Assembly: GCA_016212295.1 (NCBI GenBank)
Contig: JACRGO010000232.1
Span: 1-13,332 of the forward strand
DNA: 13,332 nucleotides
Direction of reading: 5' to 3'
From: Nitrospinota bacterium
Lineage (GTDB): Bacteria; Nitrospinota; Nitrospinia; JACRGO01
The stretch's first letter is position 1, and each line of letters begins with the position of its first letter. The notes beneath the pieces are model-generated. The model was not told where the DNA came from and searched no databases. It worked only from the letters and a program-made list of their open reading frames with translations. Made by a program: the position numbers and the translations under genes. Positions 1 through 13,332 of this stretch are shown piece by piece.

Positions 1-2
1 CA

Positions 3-138
3 TAACGGCCTGTAAAATAGCCATGCCTGTAAATGAGCATAAGCATGGAAGGTGAAATTTTTACAATTTTTTTATCCAATAAAAAAGAATACCTTGTTGA
101 TTTAAAAGACTTTTTCTTATTTATGCGTAGGCTCTATA
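3..138 (+). repeat. Left copy of 136-bp perfect terminal inverted repeat
   Basis: Read base by base, positions 3-138 are the exact reverse complement of 13197-13332. Identity stops abruptly at 138/139. Inside the repeat are a 6-bp dyad (CCATGC at 21-26, GCATGG at 43-48), two copies of GCCTGTAAA (8-16 and 25-33), and several A/T tracts. The right copy includes the last codons of the CARF-HD gene, so this left copy is a stranded antisense copy of that gene's 3' end. No transposase lies between the copies. It may be a real long terminal inverted repeat, an inverted duplication, or a contig end at a shared assembly k-mer. Confidence 0.9.
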
Positions 139-235
139 GGCCAATTTATTATTTTCGCGAATCTGTCCGCGGGAACTTCGTGGCCCAATGTATTTGATAA
201 ATACAACAACTATTTAACGCAATAGGGAAAAACCT
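139..235. other. Leader region before the AAA+ ATPase gene
   Basis: About 100 bases lie between the terminal repeat and the first gene. They must hold any local promoter for the rightward operon unless transcription enters through the repeat. I see no convincing -35/-10 pair and no sigma54 -24/-12 pair. A ribosome site (AGGGAAA, 224-230) sits at good distance from the ATG at 236. A small GC-rich dyad (CGCG around 156-172) is present, with no function I can assign. Confidence 0.4.
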
Positions 236-1555
236 ATGGACAAGCAGAAAACAACGCCGGTTCTTTATTGCAATAATGAGAGTAGAAAAAAAGAAATTGA
301 AAATTCGTTTTCATCTATAACGCCTTTATCCCTCCCAACCAGCTTTTGGACCGTATGGATTTGCGGCTCTGAGGCAAAGCCCTCATTTCCTCAATTTAAC
401 TTCCCCTCCACAACAGCTTTGAATATCCCGCGAATCCTCCTGGTTTTCGAGGCAAAGCCGTTGAATCCGGACATTCTCAAGGCATGGCGGGAATGGGCCA
501 TCGGCAAAGGGGCGATGGATATCAAAGCTGAAATTTTTACTAGCGGCGATGTAAAAACATTTCTTGAAAACAGCCTGAAACCTTGGCTGTCCCTTAGCCA
601 AAAAAGCAGGGAAGAGCCTGGTGTAAAAAAAGGGGAATGGATTTCATTCCCGGGAAAAAAAGCTCAAAAGGGAGACCCCTCCCTTCTTTCCCTGATGGTG
701 GGCAGCACCGGCGAACTTCTTTCCTATCTGGACTGGGTGCGGAAGGATTTCAGCAAGGCCTGCCAATTTAAGGATGCGGGTAGAGAAAAATATCTTAAAT
801 CCATAGCCCAAGCGCTTAAGGACCCGAAGCAAAAAAATTCCGTGTCCTCGCCTTTGGGCGTTGAAAACCTGTTAGACCATCTGCCGCGAGTCCTTCTTTT
901 GGGCGAAACGGGCGTGGGAAAAACTCTTTTCGCCAGATATTTATCCGGAGTTGAAAAGATGGTCAGGATTTCCATACCTGAGTATCTGGCAAAGGAGGAC
1001 ATGTTTGAATACGATCTCTTCGGTTACACCGCCCATGCCTATAGCGGCGCGAATCCGGACGGGAGCCCAGGAATTTTGCTAAATAACCTGGGCGGAGTGG
1101 TTTTCCTGGATGAACTTGGCGAGGCGTCCCCAAAAATTCAGCAAAAATTGCTGGCCTTTCTGGATGACTACCGGGTGCGGCCCAGGGGATGGAACGGCGA
1201 GCCTTTTTATTGTCCGGTATTGATAGTCGGCGCCACCAATCAACCCATGGACAAAGACAAGGAAAAATACCGGAACGATCTCTTGCAACGCTTTACCCAC
1301 GTCAAAACCATCCCTCCCCTCAGGGACCGCAAGGCCAATTTCCACATGCTGCTGGATTGCCTGCTCCAGAACGGAGGGGTCAATACGGATGGAGCAATCG
1401 AGGAAGTGGGCGACAAGGCTTTTAAGTTTTTGCTTGAGGATCAATACAAAGAAGGAAATTTCAGGGAGCTGGAAAACCGGATGCGCCATGCATGCCAGAG
1501 GGCCAGATTGGATGGGAGGAATTACCTTGTGGTGGAGGATTTTAAACATCCATGA
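236..1555 (+). CDS. Sigma54-activator-type AAA+ ATPase with unknown N-terminal domain and altered GAFTGA loop
   Basis: 439 residues. The C-terminal half is a clear AAA+ domain of the bacterial enhancer-binding protein (NtrC/RtcR-like) class: Walker A GETGVGKT (223-230), Walker B VVFLDE (288-293), an arginine-finger segment YRNDLLQRF (345-353) followed by PPLRDR, and sensor II GNFRELEN (407-414). The loop that normally reads GAFTGA and contacts sigma54 reads HAYSGA (267-272): Thr to Ser and Phe to Tyr are conservative, but the first Gly is lost. The protein ends soon after the AAA+ domain, with no visible helix-turn-helix. Residues 1-200 are unrecognised; RtcR relatives near type III loci can carry a CARF sensor there, but I cannot show one here. 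The stop overlaps the csx3 start by 4 bases (ATGA), which implies translational coupling and a shared role in cOA response. It could be a transcription activator or a repurposed remodeller. Confidence 0.85.
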   Translation: MDKQKTTPVLYCNNESRKKEIENSFSSITPLSLPTSFWTVWICGSEAKPSFPQFNFPSTTALNIPRILLVFEAKPLNPDILKAWREWAIGKGAMDIKAEIFTSGDVKTFLENSLKPWLSLSQKSREEPGVKKGEWISFPGKKAQKGDPSLLSLMVGSTGELLSYLDWVRKDFSKACQFKDAGREKYLKSIAQALKDPKQKNSVSSPLGVENLLDHLPRVLLLGETGVGKTLFARYLSGVEKMVRISIPEYLAKEDMFEYDLFGYTAHAYSGANPDGSPGILLNNLGGVVFLDELGEASPKIQQKLLAFLDDYRVRPRGWNGEPFYCPVLIVGATNQPMDKDKEKYRNDLLQRFTHVKTIPPLRDRKANFHMLLDCLLQNGGVNTDGAIEEVGDKAFKFLLEDQYKEGNFRELENRMRHACQRARLDGRNYLVVEDFKHP

Positions 1556-1878
1556 TTACCTTCAATGCCACGACGGCTGATACCTATACCCTGATTCATT
1601 TCGAGATAGAAGGCGGAGTTTGCTCCCCCGGCGATCTGGAGAATCTCCAGCCGCCCAAGGTTGATTCCTCCAAGGGGGTTGTTCTTTCAGGGCGGGGACC
1701 TGTTTGGCTTTACGGCTGTTTGCTCCATCACTACCATCCGGCGGCGTGGGCCGCCACAAGGGATGACAGGCATGGGAGGGATGGGAGGCCGGCGGCGGTG
1801 GTGGTAATGAGCCATGCGAAAGCGGTAAAATCGGGCCAGGTGATTTTGATGGACAAGGATAACTTGGAGAAGGAATAG
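1552..1878 (+). CDS. csx3: Csx3 (Crn3) cyclic-oligoadenylate ring nuclease
   Basis: 108 residues, the usual length of stand-alone Csx3. The family core is plain: VVLSGRGPVWLYG (43-55), then a histidine cluster HHYHP (59-63), a DDR motif (71-73) and VVVMSH ending at His88. Csx3 proteins are metal-dependent nucleases that linearise cyclic tetra-adenylate and so switch off type III signalling; the His and Asp-Arg positions correspond to the family's metal/active-site region. In this copy a Gly/Arg-rich stretch (73-79) follows the DDR. The start codon lies in the ATGA overlap with the upstream ATPase gene, and the HEPN gene follows after 9 bases, so all are probably in one transcript. Its presence suggests that cA4 is the messenger made by the Cas10 here; that is inferred from family knowledge. 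Confidence 0.9.
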   Translation: MITFNATTADTYTLIHFEIEGGVCSPGDLENLQPPKVDSSKGVVLSGRGPVWLYGCLLHHYHPAAWAATRDDRHGRDGRPAAVVVMSHAKAVKSGQVILMDKDNLEKE

Positions 1879-1887
1879 AGGGCGCTC

Positions 1888-2280
1888 ATGGATATAAATC
1901 AGCAAGTGGATTATTGGCTGAAATCCGCCGCTCACGATTTGGAAGCCGCGGAGTCGCTCTTTCAGAATCAGAAATACGACTGGTGTCTATTCATCGGCCA
2001 TTTGGTTATTGAAAAGGTTTTAAAGGCTTTTTACGTGAAGGATAATAATGAGATTCCTCCCAAGATTCATAACCTGTTAAGATTGGCGGAAAGGACTGGC
2101 CTTCTTTTTTCGGATATTCAAAAACAATTTTTAGGCGAGGTAAACCGTTTTAATATTGAGACGAGATACCCGGATACTCTGCACAGTTTTTACAAAGTAT
2201 GCACGGAAGAGTTCACCGAGGAATATTTTAAAAAGATAAAGGAGATGTATCAATGGCTGCTGTTACGGATGAAGCCGTAG
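1888..2280 (+). CDS. hepT: HEPN-domain toxin (HepT-like)
   Basis: 130 residues, all-helical HEPN protein of the PF05168 type. Recognisable features are the N-terminal SAAHDLEAAESL helix, the IEKVLKAFYV helix (around 41-50), PPKIHNLLRLA (57-67), and RYPDTLH (93-99), which fits the RX4-6H signature of HEPN RNases and HepT toxins. The gene overlaps the following MNT gene by 28 bases, the standard order and coupling of HEPN/MNT toxin-antitoxin pairs. In such pairs the MNT partner AMPylates and silences the HEPN toxin. Its place between csx3 and cas10 suggests either a guard module for the CRISPR locus or an extra abortive effector; the sequence does not decide. Confidence 0.85.
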   Translation: MDINQQVDYWLKSAAHDLEAAESLFQNQKYDWCLFIGHLVIEKVLKAFYVKDNNEIPPKIHNLLRLAERTGLLFSDIQKQFLGEVNRFNIETRYPDTLHSFYKVCTEEFTEEYFKKIKEMYQWLLLRMKP

Positions 2281-2585
2281 AAGTAGTGGAAAGATTTTTA
2301 CGGGCGGTCAAGAAGGCGGGTATAAAAATTGATAAGGCAATATTATTCGGTTCCTATGTGAATGGAACTGCCGGGGAATGGAGCGATATAGACGTTGCTA
2401 TCGTTTCTCCGGATTTTTCAGGGATAGCCTTTTATGACAATAAAAAGCTTATACCTCTTTTATTAAAGGTAGACACGCGCATTGAAATACACCCCTTCAC
2501 ACCCGAGGATTTCACGGAAGACAACCTTTTCGCAAGGGAAATATTGAAACAGGGGGTTGAGATTGAGTATTCTTTATGGCAATGA
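2253..2585 (+). CDS. mntA: MNT-type nucleotidyltransferase antitoxin (MntA-like)
   Basis: 110 residues, a minimal nucleotidyltransferase. The signature GSYVNGTAGEWSDID places GS at 33-34 and the metal-binding aspartates at 45 and 47 (GSX10DXD). This is the expected antitoxin for the HEPN gene it overlaps by 28 bases. A strong ribosome site (AAGGAG, about 2239-2244) lies inside the HEPN gene at suitable spacing and supports the ATG at 2253. The 3' end (2472-2569) is the parent of two degenerate copies further downstream (3293-3391 and 3959-4057). Confidence 0.88.
   Translation: MAAVTDEAVEVVERFLRAVKKAGIKIDKAILFGSYVNGTAGEWSDIDVAIVSPDFSGIAFYDNKKLIPLLLKVDTRIEIHPFTPEDFTEDNLFAREILKQGVEIEYSLWQ
2472..2569 (+). 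repeat. MNT 3'-end repeat, copy 1 (in the intact gene)
   Basis: A 98-base segment coding for the DTRIEIHPF...GVEIEY end of MntA. It recurs at 3293-3391 and 3959-4057 with about four or five differences per copy, each including a one-base insertion. This copy is in an intact frame and is therefore probably the ancestral or least damaged one. Confidence 0.9.
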
Positions 2586-2650
2586 GGGCTGAGTCGGGAA
2601 AAAGTCAAAAACTTTCATCAAAAAAACATTGGCTGCTGAAGGAAAGAAAA

Positions 2651-2965
2651 ATGACAAATGTAACGGTAAGGGTCCCGGATGACATAAAAGATATTGTTTC
2701 CGGCACAAGTGAGACAATTTATGTTGAAGCTTTGATGGAGGTTGCCAGGAAACGCATTGCCTACACTCAAAACCGCTTGAATGATTTGCAGGCAAAATCC
2801 GATGAATATAAGAAAAAGTATAACAAGCCTTATGAAGAATTTTCTCAAAATGTGCCGGATACCTTACAGGGACACGACGACTGGATAGAGTGGGCGCATA
2901 CGGAAAAAATTTTAAATGAGTTAAATAAAAAAATCGAGAAACTTCATATCCTTATTGGTAAATGA
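2651..2965 (+). CDS. Small helical protein with ribbon-helix-helix-like N-terminus, possible antitoxin
   Basis: 104 residues when started at the ATG at 2651, which has GAAGGAAAG about 6 bases upstream. An in-frame ATG at 2576 would add 25 low-complexity residues overlapping mntA and is less likely. The N-terminus MTNVTVRVPDDIKDIVSG looks like a short beta strand followed by a helix, as in ribbon-helix-helix antitoxins. The rest is strongly charged and helical (Lys-rich, probable coiled coil around 30-60 and 80-104). The stop overlaps the next small ORF by four bases (ATGA), suggesting a two-gene module. I do not recognise the family, so the antitoxin role is only an inference from form and context. 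Confidence 0.6.
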   Translation: MTNVTVRVPDDIKDIVSGTSETIYVEALMEVARKRIAYTQNRLNDLQAKSDEYKKKYNKPYEEFSQNVPDTLQGHDDWIEWAHTEKILNELNKKIEKLHILIGK

Positions 2966-3087
2966 CAGAGCCTGATTTTGCGGAAACCGTTGAGGAATAC
3001 AATGATATTGTTGAATCCGTTGAGAACATGGAAATCGCGGAAGAAGAGAATATTTCGAAATTAAAAGCCAAGCTTCTCACAATTTAA
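2962..3087 (+). CDS. 41-residue acidic ORF coupled to the preceding gene
   Basis: A short ORF starting in an ATGA overlap with the gene before it and ending in TAA at 3085-3087. The product (MTEPDFAETVEEYNDIVESV...) is very acidic for its first 30 residues and turns basic at the end (SKLKAKLLTI). It may be a real small partner of the 104-residue protein, or the remaining 5' part of a longer gene whose end was lost when the repeat at 3114 and the MNT-tail copy arrived. There is no recognisable domain. Confidence 0.45.
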   Translation: MTEPDFAETVEEYNDIVESVENMEIAEEENISKLKAKLLTI

Positions 3088-3113
3088 GAATCTCTTAAAA
3101 AATCAAAGACATG

Positions 3114-3196
3114 GAACCACGAATGGACACGAATGAACACTAATTATTTTTAGTAGTTTTATAAAATTCGTGTCAATTCGTGTTAATTCGTGGTTC
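3114..3196. repeat. Long imperfect inverted repeat with internal ACGAAT direct repeats
   Basis: The left arm begins GAACCACGAATGGACACGAA at 3114, and the right arm ends in the complementary ATTCGTGGTTC at 3186-3196. Each arm also contains tandem ACACGAAT-type units about ten bases apart. The centre is A/T-rich. The whole could form a long hairpin. Similar 'cacgaatggacacgaat' sequences are, from general knowledge, abundant intergenic repeats in several environmental bacterial lineages. The proximity to duplicated MNT ends suggests it may have served as a recombination site. Confidence 0.75.
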
Positions 3197-3292
3197 AGAA
3201 AGTTTTTTTGTGGCTTTGTGGTTAAAAAATTTCAAATATTTTTGGTTAGCTTTTATGGCAGGCAAAGAATCAACCCCTTTATACTGAAAACG

Positions 3293-3391
3293 GACACGCG
3301 CATTGAAATACACCCCTTCAAGCCCGAGGATTTCACGGAAGACAACCTTTTCGCAAGGGAAATATTGAAAACAGGGGGTTGAAATTGAGTA
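3293..3391 (+). pseudogene. MNT 3'-end remnant, copy 2
   Basis: 99 bases nearly identical to the 3' end of mntA (2472-2569), with about four differences. One is an extra A in the run near 3370, which throws the end out of frame (translation ends KTGG instead of KQGVEIEY). There is no 5' nucleotidyltransferase core in front of it, so it is a fragment. It ends six bases before the start codon of the second MNT gene. Confidence 0.85.
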
Positions 3392-3396
3392 AAAAC

Positions 3397-3723
3397 ATGG
3401 ATGAACTAAATATCAAAATAGCGATAGAAGAATTAAAAAAAAGGCTGATAGACAAATTAGGAGCCAATACGGAGGTTTATCTTTTCGGTTCTGTCGCGCG
3501 GGGGGATTTTGCGCGGTCTTCCGACATAGACCTCCTTGTCCTCATAGACGGGGAAGTGAATAATTCGATTGAGGAAGAGGTATTCGACCTTGCCTATGAT
3601 GTGGAGCTTCAATGCAATGTTGTATTCGGAATAGTCGTGTATTCAAGGGATTTTTGGAATTCGCGGGCCGCAAGTTATATGCCCCTCTATAAAAACATAA
3701 AAAGAGAAGGCGCGCGCGTATGA
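3397..3723 (+). CDS. Second MNT-type nucleotidyltransferase antitoxin
   Basis: 108 residues from the ATG at 3397; a TTG at 3379 would add six residues encoded by the MNT-tail remnant and has no ribosome-site spacing. The motif GSVARGDFARSSDIDLLV carries the GSX10DXD signature (GS 31-32, Asp43 and Asp45). It belongs to a different MNT branch from the one at 2253, with little similarity outside the motif. The stop overlaps the start of a HEPN reading frame by four bases (ATGA), the standard pairing. That HEPN gene is broken, so this antitoxin appears orphaned. No clear ribosome site precedes the ATG. Confidence 0.8.
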   Translation: MDELNIKIAIEELKKRLIDKLGANTEVYLFGSVARGDFARSSDIDLLVLIDGEVNNSIEEEVFDLAYDVELQCNVVFGIVVYSRDFWNSRAASYMPLYKNIKREGARV

Positions 3724-3952
3724 ATTATAGGGAGGAGCTTATCGCGTACAGGAGGGGACGGGCAAGGGAGGCCATCGAGGACGCAAGGATACTTTTTGAC
3801 GGCAAGAGGTTTTATTCCGCCAGAAGAGTGATTACGGCGATTTCGTTAAATTCGAGGAGGAGAGAGTTCGGCAATGGCTTGAATTGGCGCAAGACTTTAT
3901 CACGGAGATAGAAAAAGTTATTGAAGAAGAACTTTCCGGCTGTGTTGAATGA
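3720..3952 (+). pseudogene. HEPN toxin pseudogene with internal deletion
   Basis: The first 35 or so codons read as a typical HEPN N-terminus (MNYREELIAYRRGRAREA..., then GKRFYSARR). The frame then becomes nonsense and stops at 3911. From 3830, a different frame reads DYGDFVKFEEERVRQWLE and continues to a stop at 3950-3952, a typical HEPN C-terminus. The two halves are therefore joined at about 3822-3830, with loss of a middle segment (family members are usually about 120-140 residues, so roughly 150-200 bases are gone) and a frame change. The lost part would contain central HEPN helices. The toxin should be inactive. Confidence 0.8.
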
Positions 3953-3958
3953 AAAACG

Positions 3959-4057
3959 GACACGCGCATTGAAATCCGCCCCCTTCACGCCCGAGGATTT
4001 CACGGAAGACAACCTTTTCGCAAGGGAAATATTGAAACAGGGGGTTGAGATTCAGTA
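3959..4057 (+). pseudogene. MNT 3'-end remnant, copy 3
   Basis: 99 bases nearly identical to the mntA 3' end (2472-2569), with about five differences including an extra C in the CCCC run near 3980 that destroys the frame. It begins seven bases after the broken HEPN gene and ends 43 bases before the cas10 ATG. Copies 2 and 3 share the flank GAAAAACG/TGAAAACG just upstream, so one may derive from the other. Confidence 0.85.
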
Positions 4058-4100
4058 AGAAATCCAATAGTCCTTGAACGCTTCTATAGCAAGAGAATTT

Positions 4101-6323
4101 ATGGATAGCAAATACCTCGTCATAATAGATGTGGACAAGATACAGGATTATATCTTTGCCACGGGTAAGCTGAAGGAAATCCGGGGGGCCAGCGCCATCC
4201 TCTCCGATTTCAATGATTTCGGCGAGGTTGAAAGGAGATTAGCGCCATTTTGTGGCGAACTTTTATACTCCGGGGGCGGTAACGTAATGGCCCTATTTTC
4301 GGGAGTTGATGGGGAGGGGAGAGCAAAAAACTTCATCCTTTCGGAGATGGCGGAAATAAAAAAAACGACCAGCATAGCTACCCTGACGGGAATTGTTGAA
4401 AAGACATCGGAAGACGAAATAAAAGAAAAATTTGTGGAATTAGTCCTAAGAGCGGAAAGGCATCTTGCCCGCTGCAAGGAATCTAAATGGCTTGCCCTGG
4501 ATTTCTTCCATTCTCCCCTCATCAAAGTCTGTGTTTCCTGCCGGAAATATCCTGCCGAAAAAAGGGATGGAGCTGATAGCAACACTTTGCTTTGTCGCGG
4601 CTGCTTCTTGAAACGAGCGGCAAGCTCTCGAAGCCGAATCTTTAAGCAGTTCTGCGAGTGGCTCAAAATAAAGCTGGCAAAGGAGCCCATGGGAGCGTGG
4701 AACCCGTCCGATCTTGATAATTATTATAAATCTTCGATAATGGAAGAGAGGGACCTCTCTCACATCGGCGATAAATCGGACGGCTATGTAGGATTGATTG
4801 TTAGTGACGGAAACAGAATGGGAGAAAAGTTAAAAACCGTACAAAATCAGGAAAAGTTTAAAGAACTAAGCCGCTTAATTAAAGAATCCTTGCGCGAGTC
4901 TTTGTTCGAGGCCATTGCCAGGGGATTGACGCCCGATGCATCAGGCTTTGTTCCGGTCGAATTCGTTTTAGTGGGAGGAGACGATCTTGTTCTTGTGCTT
5001 CCCACAAACCGGGCCATCAGAGTCGCCCAGGATGTATGCCGCATCTTTCAGGAGAAAACCAGAGAAGCCGGCTCGGAACTCTCAATTTCGTCAGGCGTGG
5101 CCATTGCCCGCTCCAAATTTCCCATCTCCCGTCTCCACAAAATTGGGGAAGATCTCCTGAAATCCGCGAAAAGGTTAAGTAATCAATACAAAACAGAAGA
5201 GAAGATAGAGGCAGGCTGTCTTGATTTCGCCGTTATTTCCACTGCGTCTTCCTCAGGAATACAAGAGATTAGGGAGAAGGAATACTCCTTTCAGCCTCCG
5301 AACCAAAACTTCAAAACGCACCGGCGTCCGTACAGGGTCTTCGACTCAAAAAACAACCCAAGCGAATTGATGGACCTCATCTCCTCCATCGAAACCCTTC
5401 AAAAAGAGAAATTTCCCAAATCCAGGCTTAATCAGTACTACAAGGCCCTTCTTTCTGGGGACAAAGATCAGCTCCTTTACGACCTGTTGCGCCTTACGGC
5501 CCGTCTCAAGGAAAAAGAGAGAAAGGTCTTCAATAATTCTGTAATTGAAAAACTTTCTATGAAAAATTTTTGGGTGGAAACAAGCGAGAATGCAGAGCAG
5601 GTATACAAAAACCCCATCTCGGATATTGTGGAGCTTTACGATTTTATACAGGAGAAGAAAAGCCGGCAAATGACAGAGATAAAGAATGTTTTTTTGAAAA
5701 TTCAAATAACGCCCCGCACCCCCTTTCATATCGGCTCTGGATTGGGGGTGAGCGGGATCATCGACAAGGCGATGCTCAAGGATGCATCAGGTCTCCCATA
5801 CATACCCGGATCAACTCTGAAGGGGCGGATCAAATACCACTACACCCGGCTTTACCCTTTGTTTCATTCGGACCCAATATGCATCGATTATGCTGCTTGT
5901 TGCGCGATTCCGGATGTCCGGAGTTGCTGCTCCGTATGCCGGATATTCGGTTCCAGGGCGCATCGAGGCGGCTTGGTGTTTAAGGACGCCCTTCAGACAA
6001 AACCCCAATTCAAAGGAATTCCTTCAAGACGGGTGGAATTTATGAAGACTTATCCTCCCTTTTCTCCATCCATTCGAATGGGGGTAAAAATCAGCCGGCG
6101 AAGGAGAGTGGCGGAGGAAAAAAAACTTTTCTCCATGGAGGTCTCTTCTCCCCAGTTGCCATACGAAACGGAGATCGCCGGGCGTCTTTTTTTGAAAGAA
6201 AAGGAATTCAATTTTTTTTTGATGGTCTTAAAGAGAATGGATAAAATAGGCGGAGGAAAATCAAGAGGTCTGGGCGCCGTGGAAATCACATTCTTACCTG
6301 AAACCAAGGAGGACGAACAATGA
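4101..6323 (+). CDS. cas10: Cas10 (HD-less, active cyclase) fused to a Csm3-like Cas7
   Basis: 740 residues from the ATG at 4101 (AAGAGAA upstream); a TTG at 4074 would add nine residues. Residues 1-520 are Cas10: first palm LVIIDVDKIQDYIFATGK, a four-Cys zinc site (Cys144, 147, 165, 168), the GGDD cyclase motif at 292-295, and a helical D4 end. There is no N-terminal HD nuclease. Residues 524-740 are a complete Cas7: FHIGSG, Asp555 (module position 32, matching the RNA-cleaving Asp32/33 of Csm3), LPYIPGSTLKGR, CSVCRIFG (610-617), and the glycine-rich GGGKSRGLG loop (717-725). This large subunit should bind the crRNA 5' region, make cyclic oligoadenylate, and supply one backbone Cas7. The junction at Met524 (5670) retains an out-of-frame ATGA overlap, so the fusion may stem from a one-base insertion. 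The 3' end overlaps csx10 by ATGA. Confidence 0.92.
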   Translation: MDSKYLVIIDVDKIQDYIFATGKLKEIRGASAILSDFNDFGEVERRLAPFCGELLYSGGGNVMALFSGVDGEGRAKNFILSEMAEIKKTTSIATLTGIVEKTSEDEIKEKFVELVLRAERHLARCKESKWLALDFFHSPLIKVCVSCRKYPAEKRDGADSNTLLCRGCFLKRAASSRSRIFKQFCEWLKIKLAKEPMGAWNPSDLDNYYKSSIMEERDLSHIGDKSDGYVGLIVSDGNRMGEKLKTVQNQEKFKELSRLIKESLRESLFEAIARGLTPDASGFVPVEFVLVGGDDLVLVLPTNRAIRVAQDVCRIFQEKTREAGSELSISSGVAIARSKFPISRLHKIGEDLLKSAKRLSNQYKTEEKIEAGCLDFAVISTASSSGIQEIREKEYSFQPPNQNFKTHRRPYRVFDSKNNPSELMDLISSIETLQKEKFPKSRLNQYYKALLSGDKDQLLYDLLRLTARLKEKERKVFNNSVIEKLSMKNFWVETSENAEQVYKNPISDIVELYDFIQEKKSRQMTEIKNVFLKIQITPRTPFHIGSGLGVSGIIDKAMLKDASGLPYIPGSTLKGRIKYHYTRLYPLFHSDPICIDYAACCAIPDVRSCCSVCRIFGSRAHRGGLVFKDALQTKPQFKGIPSRRVEFMKTYPPFSPSIRMGVKISRRRRVAEEKKLFSMEVSSPQLPYETEIAGRLFLKEKEFNFFLMVLKRMDKIGGGKSRGLGAVEITFLPETKEDEQ
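5650..5672 (+). promoter_or_regulatory. Possible internal ribosome site and start for a separate Cas7
   Basis: Inside the cas10-cas7 frame, AGGAGAAG (5650-5657) lies upstream of an ATG (5670) that begins the Cas7 module exactly (MTEIKNVFLKIQI...). The spacing of AGGAG to ATG is about 15 bases, longer than ideal. If used, a free 217-residue Cas7 would be made alongside the fusion. It may simply be a relic of a formerly separate gene. Confidence 0.35.
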
Positions 6324-7069
6324 GGCTGAAGTTGGAATCTCCCCTTGCCCTTTCCGCCTCTCCATCGGGAAACATCAACCGTACTCTGGATTTTTTGCCA
6401 GGGTCGGCGCTCAGGGGAGCCCTGGCCTCCTCTTTTCTCGATAATAATGACCTCTCCCAGCCAAAAGCCAAGGAATTGTTCCAACGTCTATTTTTAAAAG
6501 AGGAAATTATTTTCGAGAACTTTTATATCGATGGCTCTCTTCCCGTCCCCAAAACCGCGCGCGCCTGCAAAGGCTATGGAGGATTCGCTTGTACTGGCAA
6601 CCGGAGGCGTAAAGAAAACCATGGAGTAAAGGATTACCTGCTGCCTCTTTATGCTTATGGCAAGTCTGAAAATTCAGGCGTTTTATCGGATGAATGTTAT
6701 ATATGCCGTCTTCCCATGGAGCGCTTTTCCGGCTACTATGGATACAACTCCAGGGATGGCTATTTTTTTCAGACCCCGGTTCCCCGCCGGGAAATAACCC
6801 GGACCGGGATTCACCCCGCTACCCAGACCGCCTTGCCTGGAGTTCTGTTTACGGTCGAGGTAATTAACGAGGAGAGTGTATTCGACGGCTCTATTAAAGT
6901 ATTGGATCATACCCTCGATGAAGAGTTAAAAAAATATATCAAGAGTAATGTATACTCTATTTTGGCCTGGGAAAAACAAGGGGTTTGGGCAGGGCCAGGG
7001 TCATCCAAGAGGATCTTTCAAGCCGCCTATGGACGCTGCCTTCCGTGGAAGAGAGGTTTAGTGGTTTAA
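6320..7069 (+). CDS. csx10: Csx10 (Cas5-like RAMP), N-terminal part, ends after a frameshift
   Basis: Csx10 is the type III-D Cas5-like subunit that caps the crRNA 5' end. This frame starts in an ATGA overlap with cas10-cas7, with AAGGAGG just upstream (6306-6312). It reads a good Csx10 N-terminus: MRLKLESPLALS, RTLDFLPGSALRGALA (the RAMP first-helix loop), LPVPKTARACKGYGG, a Cys-rich ECYICRLPMERFSGYYGY, and RTGIHPATQTALPGVLFTVEV. Up to about codon 214 (near 6961) it is sensible. After that it gives VWAGPGSSKRIFQ and stops at 7069. The expected continuation FGLGKTRGLGRARV, the glycine-rich RAMP loop, is in the -1 frame from about 6961. One base appears to be missing between about 6950 and 6964. 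The last 36 residues are therefore spurious. Confidence 0.85.
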   Translation: MRLKLESPLALSASPSGNINRTLDFLPGSALRGALASSFLDNNDLSQPKAKELFQRLFLKEEIIFENFYIDGSLPVPKTARACKGYGGFACTGNRRRKENHGVKDYLLPLYAYGKSENSGVLSDECYICRLPMERFSGYYGYNSRDGYFFQTPVPRREITRTGIHPATQTALPGVLFTVEVINEESVFDGSIKVLDHTLDEELKKYIKSNVYSILAWEKQGVWAGPGSSKRIFQAAYGRCLPWKRGLVV

Positions 7070-7476
7070 ACAAAAAAATAAGAGACTTTTTTGATTCCCA
7101 CAATATCTCCGCCCCATCCCAGTCATTTTCCATAACTTTTGCCTCGGATGCCCTTTTAAAGGACAACTATGGAAGGTTTGTGAGCCGCTTGGAACCTGAA
7201 ATGATATTGCCTGCACTGGCCGGAAAGGTCAGCTTGGTTTTTTCCTGCTGCTCCCTCACTAAAGTCTCTGGTTGGAACCAGGCATGGAGCCTTCCCAAAA
7301 GAGATGAACTGGCTTTGGCAAAGGGCTCGGTCTTCCTTTTCGAATCAAGTGAAAATTTGCAGGCCGCTGAGATCAATCAACTGATAAAGGAGTTGTCTCT
7401 ATTGGAAACGAGAGGTGTCGGCTCCAGAAGGAACGAAGGATTCGGGAAGGTCATGATCTGCGATCCCTTTCACTAG
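6985..7476 (+). CDS. csx10: Csx10, C-terminal part (in the shifted frame)
   Basis: This frame carries the second half of Csx10 and is open from about 6949. The listed start is a TTG at 6985 inside the glycine-rich loop (GLGKTRGLGRARV), so it is probably not a real initiation site. Diagnostic segments are FASDALLKDNYGRFVSRLEP, VSGWNQAWSLPKRDELALAKGSVFLFE, and GVGSRRNEGFGKV ending CDPFH, all typical of the Csx10 C-terminal half. Joined with the upstream frame by adding one base, the protein would be about 385 residues, normal for the family. A tight ribosome site for the next gene overlaps its TAG stop. Confidence 0.85.
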   Translation: MGRARVIQEDLSSRLWTLPSVEERFSGLNKKIRDFFDSHNISAPSQSFSITFASDALLKDNYGRFVSRLEPEMILPALAGKVSLVFSCCSLTKVSGWNQAWSLPKRDELALAKGSVFLFESSENLQAAEINQLIKELSLLETRGVGSRRNEGFGKVMICDPFH

Positions 7477-7487
7477 GGGGAGATCAC

Positions 7488-7943
7488 ATGACTCCGGGCT
7501 TAATCAGAGAGATATACTTCAGGGAAATCCTCATGAGAAGAAAGAAAACCTATATGGACGAAGCAGAGCGGATCGCCAACGATTATCGCATTTCCGATGA
7601 GCTTTCCACGAGTCAAATAAAGGGACTGACTCGAACCGCCCATTCCCTTTCCAGAATTGATGACCTCTTTCCCTATTTGGAACGGAAAGAGAAACGATCG
7701 GAATCGGGAAAGGGTTGGAGTAAAGAGTGTCCAGGTAAATCGTTGGCACAATCGATCCGCGAGTTCATCGATCGCCAGGTCCGCTCCGATGCCGACGCAA
7801 TCAATACCCTAAGCCAGGATTTACCAGTTGAAAACCAGGAACTTGCAAAAATTAAGGAGGAGGCCGGAATTATTCTGACAAGGGAGTTTATGGAATACCT
7901 TTCCGGTTGGGCCGATATTCAGGCAGAGAAACTTTTAGGCTAA
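7488..7943 (+). CDS. csm2: Cas11 small subunit (Csm2-like)
   Basis: 151 residues, all helical and charged. It contains ELSTSQIKGLTRTAHSL (about 39-55), close to the LTTSQIR signature at the start of the Csm2 core, and a C-terminal helix TREFMEYLSGWADIQAEKLL. Small subunits line the belly of the type III complex and contact the target RNA and the Cas10 D4 region. The position between csx10 and csm3 is the usual one for cas11 in type III-D operons. It begins 11 bases after csx10, with AGGGGGA (7475-7481) overlapping the csx10 stop. The N-terminal 30 residues (basic, IYFREILMRRKKTY) extend beyond the core. Confidence 0.82.
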   Translation: MTPGLIREIYFREILMRRKKTYMDEAERIANDYRISDELSTSQIKGLTRTAHSLSRIDDLFPYLERKEKRSESGKGWSKECPGKSLAQSIREFIDRQVRSDADAINTLSQDLPVENQELAKIKEEAGIILTREFMEYLSGWADIQAEKLLG

Positions 7944-7958
7944 AAAAAAGGGGGGGCC

Positions 7959-8819
7959 ATGTTTGGAGTCCTAAAAAACAGATATGTCATTCAGGGGAAT
8001 ATTGTTTTTAAAACCCCCTTACACATTGGAAGCGGAGAGAGCGGAACCCGGACCGACTCCCTTGTGGTCAAATATTTCAATGGAGAACCCTACATACCAG
8101 GCTCTTCCTTCAAGGGCGTGTTGCGCGGCACCTTGGAAAGAATAGCGCCGGTTTTGGGCCTGGACTCTTGTCTCCTTTACTCCGGTTCTGAATGCGGGAA
8201 AGTCATTAGAGAGGAAATCGAGGGAAACTCCGATTTGAAAAAAATGGTTGAAAATTTGCCTGACGGAGAGGAGGTCTATATGAAATACCTGCTTGAGGAA
8301 GCCAGGAAGAACCGGGGATTGTGCCGCACCTGCCGCCTTTTCGGCTCCCCTTACATGGCCTCCAGGATTTATTTTGATGATTTACAAGCGGATAACAGCG
8401 TAGGGAATCTTCGTTATGAAGTTCGGGATGGGGTGGGCATAGACCGGGACACGGGAACCGCGGTGGAAGGTGTGAAGTATGACTATGAGGTTGTTCCCCA
8501 GGGAATAAAATTCAGCCTCCGGGCGCGGATGGAAAACGCCGAGGACGAGGACATCCTCCTTTTGGCGGTCGGTCTGCGGGAATTGACGGAAGGGATAAGG
8601 ATGGGGGGGATGACTTCCAGAGGGCTCGGTTCCTGCAAAATTGAAGGCCTGGAAATTACTGAGTTCTTGCTGGAAACCGAGGAGGGCAAGAAAAAGTTCT
8701 GGGCTTACCTGGCCACGGGAAAGTTGCCGCCGGGAGCCATCAAGGGCGAAACCTTTATTAAGGAAAGAATCCTGGCGGCTTTCCCGGAAACAGGGGAAAA
8801 GGAGGCGAAGCCATGCTGA
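7959..8819 (+). CDS. csm3: Csm3-type Cas7 backbone subunit with catalytic Asp
   Basis: 286 residues, the best Csm3 match in the window. The features in order are: TPLHIGSG (19-26), Asp33 in the RTDSLVVK segment (the position of the RNA-cleaving Asp of Csm3), PYIPGSSFKGVLRG, CRTCRLFGS (122-130), RDGVGIDRDTGTAVEGVKYDYE, and the glycine-rich MGGMTSRGLGS loop (215-225). It should form part of the crRNA-binding filament and cut target RNA at six-nucleotide intervals. A very strong ribosome site (AGGGGGGG) precedes the ATG. The stop overlaps the next Cas7 gene by seven bases (ATGCTGA). Confidence 0.92.
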   Translation: MFGVLKNRYVIQGNIVFKTPLHIGSGESGTRTDSLVVKYFNGEPYIPGSSFKGVLRGTLERIAPVLGLDSCLLYSGSECGKVIREEIEGNSDLKKMVENLPDGEEVYMKYLLEEARKNRGLCRTCRLFGSPYMASRIYFDDLQADNSVGNLRYEVRDGVGIDRDTGTAVEGVKYDYEVVPQGIKFSLRARMENAEDEDILLLAVGLRELTEGIRMGGMTSRGLGSCKIEGLEITEFLLETEEGKKKFWAYLATGKLPPGAIKGETFIKERILAAFPETGEKEAKPC

Positions 8820-10015
8820 AGGAAATGATTAACGAATGCCGGATCACCTTTTCCCTCAAAACGGAAGGTCCGGTCCTGATTAAAAAACCGATCAACAAGA
8901 ATGAGTGCACCGAGGATGAGAAGCGGTATTACCAAAACATTTTTGGCCTGGGACAAAATGACCGGCTGCCTGATGCCTTTTTCGTCCGAACACTGCGCCA
9001 AGGCCGACTTGTCCCCTACGTGCCCGGCAGCTCCTTGAAAGGGGTCATGCGGAGCCACGCGGAGCGAATCGCAAGGACCCTCATGCCTTCTTCCGGCACG
9101 GATGAGTCGACTCTGGGATGCTGCGACATCTTTCAATCCGGGGGTCTTCAAAAAGGAGAAGAGATCGCTCAGGACTTGGCCTGCTCCTCCAAGTTTCAGC
9201 TTTATAAAGATTATGGAAAGGGGTTCCCGCTCAACGGGGAAGATGTCTATCGCTCCTCCTGCCCCGTGTGCAAGCTCTTCGGGAACGGGTTTCTCCAGTC
9301 CAGACTCCTTATCCCGGACGGATATAACCACGTCTACCATGATGCACAGGCATCCATCATAAAAAATTCTAAGCCCCAAAACATTCGATTATCCAAACGG
9401 GACGGCGTGGGAATCGACCGTTATACCGGAGGGAATGTCTCTGGCGTGAAATTTGATTTCGAGGTGGAGGAAAACGCCGTTTTCCGGTTCAACGACATTG
9501 TAATCAAGAACTTCGACCTCTGGCAGCTTGGCCTTATAGGATATTTATTTCAGGATTTCAAGGAACTGTTGATCAAGATCGGCTTTGGGAAATCCAGGGG
9601 GCTGGGGACGGTGAGCGGTTCCGTTGAGGGGATGAAGGTCATCCATTACGGACAGAGAAAACCATCCGAAGGGAAAATAAGCGGCATTTTCCACTTTCTA
9701 AGAAAGAGCGAGTATTACACGAAAGAGGAAAAGGAGATGACGGGAGGAGAGGTAGACCTTCCTGCACTCACAACACCGGCTTCCGAGGGGTATCGGCGCA
9801 TCTGCTCCTTTAACAATAAACAGGCGGAGAAGTTTCTCGCCTCCTGCTGTGAAACCTTCAGTAACGGTTCGGATACGGGCTACCTGAACGGCAATCTTTA
9901 CAGAATACCGTTGGAGATGAGAAAGAGCGCCCTGGAAAACATCAAGGGAGAGGCCCTCGAAGAAGCCAAGAAAAAAGAGGAATCTCCGGTGGAAGAGGAA
10001 AATGATCATGGGTAA
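8813..10015 (+). CDS. cas7: Large Csm3-like Cas7 subunit (400 residues)
   Basis: A second free Cas7. It has an expanded N-terminal loop: between the first strand (CRITFSLKTEGPVLI) and VPYVPGSSLKGVMR there are about 45 residues. Asp54 in LPDAFFVR is the candidate catalytic Asp. Further motifs are CPVCKLFGNGF (150-160), KRDGVGIDRYTGGNVSGVKFDFEV, and GFGKSRGLGTV (257-267). The last 120 or so residues after the glycine-rich loop are an extra charged region (ending EEAKKKEESPVEEEND) not present in the 286-residue Csm3. It overlaps csm3 at its start and csx19 at its end (ATGATCATGGGTAA), so translation is coupled throughout. Confidence 0.88.
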   Translation: MLKEMINECRITFSLKTEGPVLIKKPINKNECTEDEKRYYQNIFGLGQNDRLPDAFFVRTLRQGRLVPYVPGSSLKGVMRSHAERIARTLMPSSGTDESTLGCCDIFQSGGLQKGEEIAQDLACSSKFQLYKDYGKGFPLNGEDVYRSSCPVCKLFGNGFLQSRLLIPDGYNHVYHDAQASIIKNSKPQNIRLSKRDGVGIDRYTGGNVSGVKFDFEVEENAVFRFNDIVIKNFDLWQLGLIGYLFQDFKELLIKIGFGKSRGLGTVSGSVEGMKVIHYGQRKPSEGKISGIFHFLRKSEYYTKEEKEMTGGEVDLPALTTPASEGYRRICSFNNKQAEKFLASCCETFSNGSDTGYLNGNLYRIPLEMRKSALENIKGEALEEAKKKEESPVEEENDHG

Positions 10016-10535
10016 AGCAGGTCAAAAAAAGCTGACCGAAAATGAGCTTACCGAACTTCTCTCCGGTTTTAAATTTGAATTTCTCTACCTGGAGTGCGTG
10101 GAGGAGGCCAGGCTGGAGCATTTTCAGTTTGACGGCAGCGGATTTACCTTGCGCGAAGGGACGGTATCCTCCCTGAATAATTGGCACAGGGGGGCCGCCT
10201 TTGGACCGGAACGGGAGGTCCGTTGGGAGAGGACAGGAGAGCCTTATTACAACACACTTTTCCTGACGGAACCGGATCAACTCTTCCCGGAGGGGTGGGA
10301 AGTAAGGGACCTTTCGGATTTTGAAAGCGAAACAAGGGAGTTCTTCCTCTGGGGTGGTTACAACAAGGAACTGAAATGTTGGGAAGAAGGGAGTATTCCC
10401 AAAGCCCTTCACTATCCGCTTGATTCTGAAAAATCCCCCTCTCCCCGCCTCCAAATCAAGGAATACAGCCGCCTCTATTGGGAAGGGAACCAAGTGAGGG
10501 AAGAGAGCTTCCACCGTTTTGTGAAACTTTTTTGA
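10002..10535 (+). CDS. csx19: Csx19, type III-D specific subunit
   Basis: 177 residues from the ATG at 10002; a second in-frame ATG at 10008 is equally possible. The segments I recognise as Csx19-like are LYLECVEEARLEHFQF, FGPEREVRWERTGEPYYNTLFLTE, EFFLWGGYNKELKCWEEGSIPKALHYP, and the LQIKEYSRLYWEGNQVREESFHRFV end. Csx19 is a marker of type III-D and a structural subunit near the Cas7 filament in the characterised cyanobacterial III-D complex. Together with csx10 it fixes the subtype. It sits between two Cas7 genes, 15 bases before the next one. Confidence 0.82.
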   Translation: MIMGKAGQKKLTENELTELLSGFKFEFLYLECVEEARLEHFQFDGSGFTLREGTVSSLNNWHRGAAFGPEREVRWERTGEPYYNTLFLTEPDQLFPEGWEVRDLSDFESETREFFLWGGYNKELKCWEEGSIPKALHYPLDSEKSPSPRLQIKEYSRLYWEGNQVREESFHRFVKLF

Positions 10536-10550
10536 GGAAATGAAGGCCCT

Positions 10551-11717
10551 ATGCCGACGCCCTTTATTAATCCTTATAACTTTGTTGCCTATGATCCGGA
10601 TGAGAAGAGGATAAAAAGCCAGAGAGATTTCTCCATCCTGGGCCATGACCGCTTTACCGGAAATTCCGGCCGCCTTACGTGCCGAATCGAAACCCTCTCG
10701 CGGCTTTTTGTTGGATCCAGCGGGCAGACAAGGAACACCTTTAACCGCCTGGCCGCCGGAACCAAACCTGGAATCCAAGGCTCTTCATTGAAGGGAGTAA
10801 TTCGTTCCGTGGCCGAGGCTCTTTCCAGCAGTTGTTTTTCCATGTTTTCCGGGAACTACACGTATAAGGTTAAAAAAGACTGTTATAAGACTGCTGATCA
10901 CACCTCATGCATCGACAAATTTTACTTAAAGACAAAATGCGGACTCAGCGGCAACTCAGGGCTGTGCGCATGCTGCCGGTTATTCGGAAACTCCACGGAT
11001 AATGAAGAAATAAAATCCTTTGCCGGGAAGGTTGTCATAGGCGACGCTCCGGTAATCGGGGTTCGCGCTAAAAATGGCGCGATAATACCCGCCAATGGGA
11101 ACAACTTGTTCGAGGACGCTTATAAGTCCGCCCACGCCCTCTCCACTCCCAAACCCCATCACGAACCGTTCTATTTGAATAATAATAACCGTATCAAGGG
11201 AAGAAAGTTTTACTACCATCATGATCGGGATAAGCTTCCAAATAGAGGGCAAAATCAGGATAAAATCCAATTAATAAAGTCCCAGGTTGTTTTTGAGTTC
11301 ACCGTTGAGTACCGGAATCTCTCTCCGCAGGAACTGGGCCTGCTCCTGCTTGCCCTGAAATTGGACGATGGTTGCGCCCACAAAATCGGCCAGGGGAAAC
11401 CCCTCGGCCTTGGAAGCGCGAGGATCACAATCGAAAAATTGGAAGAATTTTCGCCGGACCGGTATAAGAAAAAAGGGAGCAAGATGGTGGAGGTCAAGGA
11501 CAATGCGCCGGCGGACGCTATCAAAGGTTTTATTGATCAACTTAAATCAGATGAAAATGTTCATTTTTTTAAAGCAGGCTGGGAGGAATTGAAGGCCATT
11601 CTTAAATATCCCGCTATAGGAAAAGTGGAATATCCGAGGAACAATTGGTTTAACTCCAATGGAAAAGCGCCGCTTCCCGTCCCGGCGGATGTAGCGAAGA
11701 GCAGTCTCATGAAATGA
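10551..11717 (+). CDS. cas7: TIGR03986-type Cas7-like RAMP subunit, catalytic Asp not seen
   Basis: 388 residues. The opening FINPYNFVAYDPDEKR and HDRFTGNSGRLTCRIETLSRLFVG, followed by IQGSSLKGVIRSVAEALSSSCFSMFSG, is the hallmark of the TIGR03986 family of type III RAMP proteins. It also has CACCRLFGNS (139-148) and the glycine-rich IGQGKPLGLGSARI loop. Between the GSSG segment and the SSLKG loop, where other Cas7s carry the RNA-cleaving Asp, this protein reads GQTRNTFNRLAAGTKPG and has none, so it is probably a non-cleaving filament or cap subunit. A Cys/Lys-rich insertion (about 100-137) precedes the Cys motif. AAGG (10543-10546) is a usable ribosome site. Confidence 0.85.
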   Translation: MPTPFINPYNFVAYDPDEKRIKSQRDFSILGHDRFTGNSGRLTCRIETLSRLFVGSSGQTRNTFNRLAAGTKPGIQGSSLKGVIRSVAEALSSSCFSMFSGNYTYKVKKDCYKTADHTSCIDKFYLKTKCGLSGNSGLCACCRLFGNSTDNEEIKSFAGKVVIGDAPVIGVRAKNGAIIPANGNNLFEDAYKSAHALSTPKPHHEPFYLNNNNRIKGRKFYYHHDRDKLPNRGQNQDKIQLIKSQVVFEFTVEYRNLSPQELGLLLLALKLDDGCAHKIGQGKPLGLGSARITIEKLEEFSPDRYKKKGSKMVEVKDNAPADAIKGFIDQLKSDENVHFFKAGWEELKAILKYPAIGKVEYPRNNWFNSNGKAPLPVPADVAKSSLMK

Positions 11718-11730
11718 AAGGAACTCCATA

Positions 11731-13218
11731 ATGAAGAACACACTTCTCATCACAACCGTCGGAACTTCCCTTCTGGAAAAGCTAGGCCGTGAAAAAATAA
11801 AGGTAAAAGGCGCCTTAGAAGCTAACGCTTTTTTTGATAGCAACCTTTACAACAACATAGAGGATTATTGCAGTAAAAACAAGACTGCAGATGCGGAAAC
11901 GACATATACGGCAGAGTGTAGCGACGTAACAGGTGTTGTAAATAAGTTAAAGAGTTTGTTGAATTATCCCATCGCCCTCCCCGCTGAAATCGCCAGCCTG
12001 TCGAAACTTGCCCCAAATAAAGATAATGACAAGGTTGTCCTGCTCTACTCCGACACGCCGGAAGGGGTCTTCTGCTCCGTGGTCCTGGAGCAGTATATTA
12101 AGAATAAGATAGTCAGTGCTGTCTGCAGGAAAAAGATAGCCGGTCTCCAGTCGGAAGACGCGAAGAAATTTCAGAGCACAGGCCTGCCCAATTTGGCGGA
12201 GGAAATGGCTGGACTGATCAACTCCAATAAGGCTTACAGGATAACGCTCAATGTCACGGGAGGGTATAAGGGAATAATCCCCTACCTCACCCTCATGGGG
12301 CTTTGCGGTGAGGATATGCGGATGGTCTATCTCTATGAAGAGAGCGATGGCATCATCGAAATCCCCCCCCTTCCCTTTAATCTGGATTTCGCGCTATGGA
12401 ATGACAACAGGGCCTTTCTTCAAACCTTGACAATGGTGAAAGGTATTTATAAGGACAAAGCGCAACTGCCGGTATCGGATAAGTTCAAGAGCCTTTTTGA
12501 GGTGGCCGCAAGCGGCGCGATTACGGCCACCGGTTATTTCTCTTTACTGCAAGGGCTTTATTCCACGGCCAAAGAGGAAAAGGCCCTGTCCGAATTCGGC
12601 AGGGGGTACATCCTGGCGGAAATGGTCCGTGATGTGGATAAAAAGAAGAAGCTCAAGGCATGGATAAATAATTCCCAGAACATCTGGTATGGCGACAACA
12701 TCCCCGAGACCGTGGACCATTCCAGAGGCCACTGCCAGCGGCTCCTTGAACTGGCGGCGCAAATTATTAAACCCATTGAGGCAAAGAGTAAAGTTTCATT
12801 TTTCACTGACGATGAACTGGTGGTCTTGAATCTCGTCCTCTGGTTTCACGATATCGGACACTCCGGCAGGGAGGCGACCAAGGGATTTAATGATAAAACC
12901 ATAGAAGCATTGCTGGCAGGGAGTGACTTGCCGACAGGCCAGGAATTCATTGACATCTCCGATTTTCCCACTGTCAACCGGGACCTGCACCATATCTTGG
13001 GGTTTATCGAGGCGCTGAGAGACCAGGAATCAAAGACGTTTTACAGGTTCAAGGATAAAGCAGATGAAGCAATCGATGGTTTTTTGCATACGGATTACCT
13101 GAAAGCCGCCATTTACGCCTATCTGTACCACCGGAAAACAATGTTGAAAATTAAAAATGGCGTGGCAAGCTCGGCATATACATTTGAACCTTTGAATATA
13201 GAGCCTACGCATAAATAA
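11731..13218 (+). CDS. CARF-HD fusion, cyclic-oligoadenylate-activated effector
   Basis: 495 residues. The N-terminal CARF domain (APE2256/Csm6-like) starts MKNTLLITTVGTSLLEKLG and has the ligand-loop motif LNVTGGYKGIIPYLTLMG (173-190). A helical linker (about 230-320) leads to an HD domain: DHSRGHCQRLLELA (His330, His334), the diagnostic WFHDIGHSG (371-379, His373-Asp374), HHILGFIEALRD, and HTDYLKAAIYAYLYHRK. HD domains of this kind are metal-dependent phosphohydrolases or nucleases. Because the Cas10 here lacks its own HD, this is the likely nuclease arm, switched on by cOA. It is the last gene of the operon, 13 bases after the Cas7 gene, with AAGGA upstream. Its last six codons (IEPTHK) and stop lie inside the right terminal inverted repeat. 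Confidence 0.88.
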   Translation: MKNTLLITTVGTSLLEKLGREKIKVKGALEANAFFDSNLYNNIEDYCSKNKTADAETTYTAECSDVTGVVNKLKSLLNYPIALPAEIASLSKLAPNKDNDKVVLLYSDTPEGVFCSVVLEQYIKNKIVSAVCRKKIAGLQSEDAKKFQSTGLPNLAEEMAGLINSNKAYRITLNVTGGYKGIIPYLTLMGLCGEDMRMVYLYEESDGIIEIPPLPFNLDFALWNDNRAFLQTLTMVKGIYKDKAQLPVSDKFKSLFEVAASGAITATGYFSLLQGLYSTAKEEKALSEFGRGYILAEMVRDVDKKKKLKAWINNSQNIWYGDNIPETVDHSRGHCQRLLELAAQIIKPIEAKSKVSFFTDDELVVLNLVLWFHDIGHSGREATKGFNDKTIEALLAGSDLPTGQEFIDISDFPTVNRDLHHILGFIEALRDQESKTFYRFKDKADEAIDGFLHTDYLKAAIYAYLYHRKTMLKIKNGVASSAYTFEPLNIEPTHK

Positions 13219-13332
13219 GAAAAAGTCTTTTAAATCAACAAGGTATTCTTTTTTATTGGATAAAAAAATTGTAAAAATTTCACCTTCCATGCTTATGCTC
13301 ATTTACAGGCATGGCTATTTTACAGGCCGTTA
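13197..13332 (-). repeat. Right copy of 136-bp perfect terminal inverted repeat
   Basis: Exact reverse complement of 3-138. It contains the last codons of the CARF-HD gene and all visible downstream sequence, and runs to the final base of the window. The short AAAAG/CTTTT dyad near 13222-13232 and the T-rich runs (near 13248) could contribute to transcript ending, but I see no convincing intrinsic terminator. Confidence 0.9.

What the first reader, a model, noticed from the sequence alone, without database searches (positions are those of the whole stretch)
4101..6323. Cas10 fused in frame to a complete Cas7, with a relic ATGA overlap at the junction
One reading frame runs through an HD-less Cas10 (GGDD 292-295, D4 end) directly into a full Csm3-like Cas7 with its catalytic Asp555, Cys-x2-Cys-RIFG and glycine-rich loop. 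I do not know of Cas10-Cas7 as a standard type III fusion (known ones join Cas7, Cas5 and Cas11). At the joint (5670-5673) the bases ATGA remain, with the TGA one base out of the cas10 frame, and AGGAGAAG lies upstream. This is just how the other genes of this operon overlap. So the fusion may have arisen through one inserted base, for example in the AAAA run at 5658-5661. If real, it ties one Cas7 to the cyclase subunit at fixed stoichiometry.
Basis: partly seen in the sequence, partly recalled or inferred. Interest (0 to 1): 0.75.

Follow-up and report, generated by a model that had tools for sequence, protein, structure and literature searches.

The report
Joined CRISPR genes in eroding operon
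Two neighbouring CRISPR defence genes (cas10 and cas7) really do read as one long gene in this assembled bacterial contig, but every relative examined keeps them apart and three other genes of the same locus are broken here, so the joint is most likely a by-product of decay (or an assembly error) and not a new working protein.

Summary
One frame, 4101-6323 (740 aa), runs through a complete HD-less Cas10 into a complete Csm3-like Cas7 with its catalytic Asp. The operon is type III-D: csx10, cas11, two csx7, csx19 and a terminal TIGR03986 cas7 follow. The case for a functional fusion is weak. None of 27 distinct relatives is fused. The same locus carries three other lesions. csx10 (Cas5) is frameshifted 1.3 kb downstream and has no second copy in the genome. 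The HEPN gene just upstream of cas10 lacks its middle. The CARF-HD effector stops inside a high-copy repeat at 495 aa, against an 844-aa frame in its homologue. A second Cas10 sits on another contig. I found no Cas10-Cas7 fusion in the papers or genomes searched. Best reading: a III-D locus losing function, with the joined frame as one of its scars. A sequence error is the main rival. A working fusion gets about 0.12. Raw reads over 5640-5680 and 6935-6990 would decide.

The parts
4101..5669 (+). Cas10 half of the joined frame (HD-less; GGDD 292-295; natural end about residue 516-526, after LYDFI)
5670..6323 (+). Cas7 (Csm3-like, first Cas7) half; starts at the former ATG; Asp555 of the joined protein = residue 26 of this half
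5650..5673 (+). joint: AGGAGAAG, AAAA run 5658-5661, CAA codon 5667-5669, ATGA 5670-5673
6320..7476 (+). csx10 (Cas5 of III-D) split over two frames; homology changes frame between 6935 and 6955
7488..7943 (+). cas11 (small subunit; weak III-D Csm2 match; 28% identical to Nitrospinae cas11)
7959..8819 (+). cas7 (csx7), second
8813..10015 (+). cas7 (csx7-like), third
10002..10535 (+). csx19 (below family cut-off; syntenic with Nitrospinae csx19)
10551..11717 (+). terminal cas7, TIGR03986 family
11731..13218 (+). CARF7-HD effector, truncated: homology ends at about residue 475; last codons and stop lie in the repeat
13197..13332 (.). copy of a high-copy repeat (inverted copy at 3-138) that cuts the CARF-HD gene
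3379..3723 (+). MNT-type nucleotidyltransferase, second pair
3720..3952 (+). HEPN gene lacking its middle; C-terminal homology in another frame from 3818
1552..1878 (+). csx3/crn3 ring nuclease
236..1555 (+). RtcR/PspF-like AAA (sigma-54 activator type) ATPase

Best explanation
This is a type III-D1 CRISPR effector operon that is losing function. Its ancestor had cas10 ending within a few bases of the start of the following cas7, as relatives do. A one-base shift just before the cas10 stop put the two genes in one frame. If the DNA sequence is right, ribosomes would make a roughly 84-kDa Cas10-Cas7 protein, perhaps with some free Cas7 by internal initiation at 5670. That protein is probably not part of a working effector, because the Cas5 subunit (csx10) that caps the crRNA 5' end is frameshifted at its glycine-rich loop with no second copy, and the CARF-HD effector that would answer Cas10's signal is truncated. 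Shown: the open frame, the relatives' separate genes, the three other lesions. Inferred: loss of function, order of events, the one-base shift.
For: None of 27 distinct relatives is fused; in each cas10 ends at its own stop. In the seven most similar loci the cas7 start is at offset 2 mod 3 from the cas10 stop, one base away from in-frame; SZUA-158 ends ...YDFISTEVKI* with an ATGA overlap, and the window read with one base fewer would give the same layout. csx10 homology jumps frame between 6935 and 6955 while relatives with a csx10 match have one open frame; no other csx10 in the genome. HEPN: N- and C-terminal homology to the Nitrospinae gene abut in different frames, the middle missing. CARF-HD: 35-38% identical to an 844-aa frame in the same Nitrospinae genome, homology to residue about 475, then a repeat found at about 20 other contig ends. 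Another Cas10 (899-aa frame) on contig C92.
Against: Cas10 and Cas7 motifs, cas11, both csx7, csx19 and the terminal cas7 have intact frames, so any decay is recent. Truncation of an accessory effector and of a HEPN gene does not by itself kill the effector complex. No reads or second assembly could be checked, so the two frame breaks could be errors.
Confidence: 0.55

Rival explanations
1. Sequence or assembly error: a spurious base at the joint and a missing base in csx10; the real operon has separate genes and an intact csx10.
For: Two single-base frame disturbances 1.3 kb apart in an operon where no relative has either; both near short homopolymers (AAAA 5658-5661; TTTT near 6958). The window is a 13-kb contig of a 237-contig draft.
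Against: A sample of 166 kb of the same genome shows few frame breaks: two flagged places in about 107 kb of long coding segments, with 16 of 37 simulated deletions flagged, so a high global indel error rate is unlikely. The HEPN deletion and the repeat inside the CARF gene are not base-calling errors.
Confidence: 0.3
2. A real, working Cas10-Cas7 fusion in a functional III-D effector, tying the first Cas7 to the cyclase subunit.
For: Both halves keep their motifs. In the solved III-Dv complex Cas10 residues lie next to the catalytic site of the first Cas7, and fusions of Cas7, Cas5 and Cas11 are tolerated there (PMC11026444).
Against: No other case in the relatives or genomes searched or in the papers searched. 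No added linker: the joint is only the usual Cas10 tail, whereas the III-Dv fusions have about 20-residue linkers. csx10 is split.
Confidence: 0.12
3. About the origin only (compatible with decay or with a working fusion): the joint arose by loss of an in-frame stop (TAA to CAA at 5667-5669) directly before the ATG, not by an indel.
For: CAA is one transition from TAA. Three relatives (L061, L054, L068) have cas10 and cas7 in the same frame separated by one stop codon, in L061 abutting exactly.
Against: Those three are distant (at most about 30% identity); the seven most similar loci are all at offset 2 mod 3.
Confidence: 0.2

Closest known systems
Type III-D CRISPR operon of Nitrospinae bacterium RIFCSPLOWO2_12_FULL_45_22 (MHDQ01000291, L053/L058)
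   Same: Same gene order: MNT-HEPN, cas10, cas7, csx10, cas11, two csx7, csx19; cas10 about 42-44% identical; same genome has a CARF-HD homologue
   Different: cas10 and cas7 are separate (5 nt apart, out of frame); csx10, HEPN and CARF-HD are intact
Type III-Dv effector of Synechocystis (PMC11026444; PDB 8s9t)
   Same: III-D gene order; multiple subunit fusions; Cas10 lies next to the first Cas7
   Different: There Cas7-Cas5-Cas11 and Cas7-Cas7 are fused with about 20-residue linkers; Cas10 is separate
Caldisericaceae III-D locus (JALVXB010000036, L010/L061)
   Same: cas10 and cas7 in one frame and directly abutting
   Different: A TAG stop separates them; csx10 intact

Membership tests
Type III-D CRISPR-Cas | Cas10 large subunit | tested here: met
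Type III-D CRISPR-Cas | csx10 gene (III-D Cas5) present | tested here: met
   III-D Csx10 profiles matched by both pieces in order; the frame is broken, so no complete Csx10 is encoded as one open frame
Type III-D CRISPR-Cas | III-D gene order with csx19 and terminal TIGR03986 cas7 | tested here: met
   (csx19 28 bits against a cut-off of 35; syntenic)
Type III-D CRISPR-Cas | crRNA-guided assembly and cOA synthesis | not testable with these tools
   needs expression
Adaptive type III gene fusion (as in III-Dv) | fusion conserved in more than one lineage | tested here: not met
   0 of 27 relatives; no fused hit in the genome searches
Adaptive type III gene fusion (as in III-Dv) | linker between the fused domains | tested here: not met
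   the joint holds only the normal Cas10 C-terminal tail; III-Dv linkers about 20 residues
Adaptive type III gene fusion (as in III-Dv) | sequence confirmed by reads | not testable with these tools
   no reads held

The most novel reading that the evidence does not exclude
A genuine, translated Cas10-Cas7 fusion works in the III-D effector of this lineage, with Csx10 made whole by an undetected route or in reality intact. It would be a fusion arrangement not described in the papers searched.
Probability: 0.12. Interest if true: 0.55.

Novelty: new member of a known kind. Interest (0 to 1): 0.2.

Why it matters
It shows how a single base between overlapping cas genes can yield what looks like a new fusion architecture in a draft genome, and that neighbouring genes must be checked for frame damage before such a fusion is catalogued. 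If the fusion were real and working, it would fix one Cas7 per Cas10 and add a step to the series of III-D fusions thought to lead towards single-protein effectors.

Tried and rejected
Programmed frameshifting in csx10: the A7 run at 6928-6934 is in slippery register, but the shifted frame meets TAA at 6946-6948 (read from the sequence), and the RNA fold of 6925-7025 is unremarkable (z -0.81). A contaminant contig: tetranucleotide correlation with the rest of the genome is 0.93, within the range of its own contigs (0.91-0.98) and far above other genomes (0.29-0.54); the end repeats are shared with about 20 contigs. Viral contigs and phages: no relatives. A first, stricter frameshift scan flagged nothing anywhere and missed the csx10 break, so it was replaced; the replacement does not flag the csx10 break either, since it scores 5783-7951 as non-coding. 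Structure prediction was not run: a monomer model would not decide between the readings, and the 19-row alignment misplaced the Cas7 rows.

Full report
Observation. The window is a whole contig (C195) of a 3.74-Mb, 237-contig draft genome. The frame 4101-6323 is open for 740 residues. Its first 520 residues match Cas10 profiles and residues 528-731 match Csm3/Cas7 profiles. No HD domain was matched. The coordinates of the joint are right.

The system. The genes that follow are csx10, cas11, two csx7-type cas7, csx19 and a terminal TIGR03986 cas7, the gene set and order of type III-D. Upstream lie an RtcR/PspF-like AAA protein, a Csx3/Crn3 ring nuclease (1.9e-23) and HEPN/MNT pairs. A CARF7-HD gene closes the contig.

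Relatives. The best match is a Nitrospinae genome (G215 = MHDQ01000291; 42-44% over Cas10) with the same order, MNT-HEPN, cas10, cas7, csx10, cas11, csx7, csx7, csx19. A scan of 84,980 species genomes returned 22 loci. With loci from the other searches I examined the cas10-cas7 joint in 27 distinct relatives: none is fused; cas10 ends at its own stop in each. Five have a four-base ATGA/GTGA overlap and three a TAATG overlap. Three are in frame with a single stop between, one of these directly abutting. Of 22 closely spaced joints 14 are at offset 2 mod 3, including the seven most similar to the window. Profile and protein searches over several hundred further genomes (overlapping samples) gave no hit spanning both halves without a stop.

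Origin of the joint. SZUA-158 ends ...YDFISTEVKI* with ATGA; the window read with one base fewer before the ATG would end a few residues past LYDFI in the same way. The ATGA alone is weak evidence. A stop loss (TAA to CAA at 5667-5669) is possible and has distant precedents for its starting state (L061), but fits the nearest relatives less well.

Other lesions in the same locus. (1) csx10: homology to the Nitrospinae protein runs in frame 2 to 6934 (residue 211) and in frame 1 from 6955 (residue 215). Every relative with a csx10 match has it in one open frame. There is no second csx10 in the genome. The break falls at the glycine-rich loop. (2) HEPN of the second pair: N-terminal homology in one frame and C-terminal homology (from residue 94 of the Nitrospinae protein) in another, with the middle missing. 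(3) CARF-HD: 35-38% identity up to about residue 475 to an 844-aa frame in the Nitrospinae genome. Beyond that the gene runs into a 136-nt repeat that supplies its last codons and stop. The repeat is found at about 20 other contig ends. A PADLOC CARF-HD profile is covered only to 418 of 670.

Error or decay. Two single-base disturbances near each other could be sequence errors. Against a high general error rate, a frame-break scan of 166 kb from the same genome flagged two places in about 107 kb of long coding segments, with 16 of 37 simulated deletions detected. The same scan does not flag the csx10 break in the window, so its reach is limited. Lesions 2 and 3 are structural and not of the base-calling kind. 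I therefore favour decay (0.55) over error (0.30), and cannot settle it without reads.

Could it work? In the III-Dv structure Cas10 residues neighbour the catalytic site of the first Cas7, and other subunit fusions exist with about 20-residue linkers (PMC11026444). A Cas10-Cas7 fusion is thus not absurd. Here no linker was gained, and Cas5 is broken. Searches of the held papers for a Cas10-Cas7 or Cas10-Csm3 fusion found none (titles and term counts only were read). The passages shown from the 2025 classification (PMC12669027) do not mention one, but only 12 of 30 places were displayed.

Verdict. The frame is real in the assembly; its meaning as a new effector architecture is not supported.

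Noticed in passing
window 3-138 and 13197-13332: Perfect 136-nt inverted arms at the contig ends, a repeat present at about 20 other contig ends of the genome; a 28-nt core recurs at about 18 more places, like a transposon or MITE terminus. In contig C99 a copy lies between genes.
   Followed up: partly
window 2429-2556, 3250-3377, 3917-4044: Three direct copies (81% and 63% to the first) of the 3' end of the MNT gene between the HEPN-MNT pair and cas10, a sign of past recombination beside cas10.
   Followed up: no
window 236-1878: RtcR/PspF-like AAA gene without a matched CARF domain overlapping a csx3/crn3 ring nuclease gene by ATGA.
   Followed up: no
window 5783-7951: A coding model trained on the same genome scores this stretch (most of the Cas7 half, csx10, cas11) as non-coding; the Cas7 half has the weakest coding signal of the operon.
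   Followed up: partly
G000:C92:10961-15413: A second type III locus with an 899-aa Cas10 frame in the same genome.
   Followed up: no
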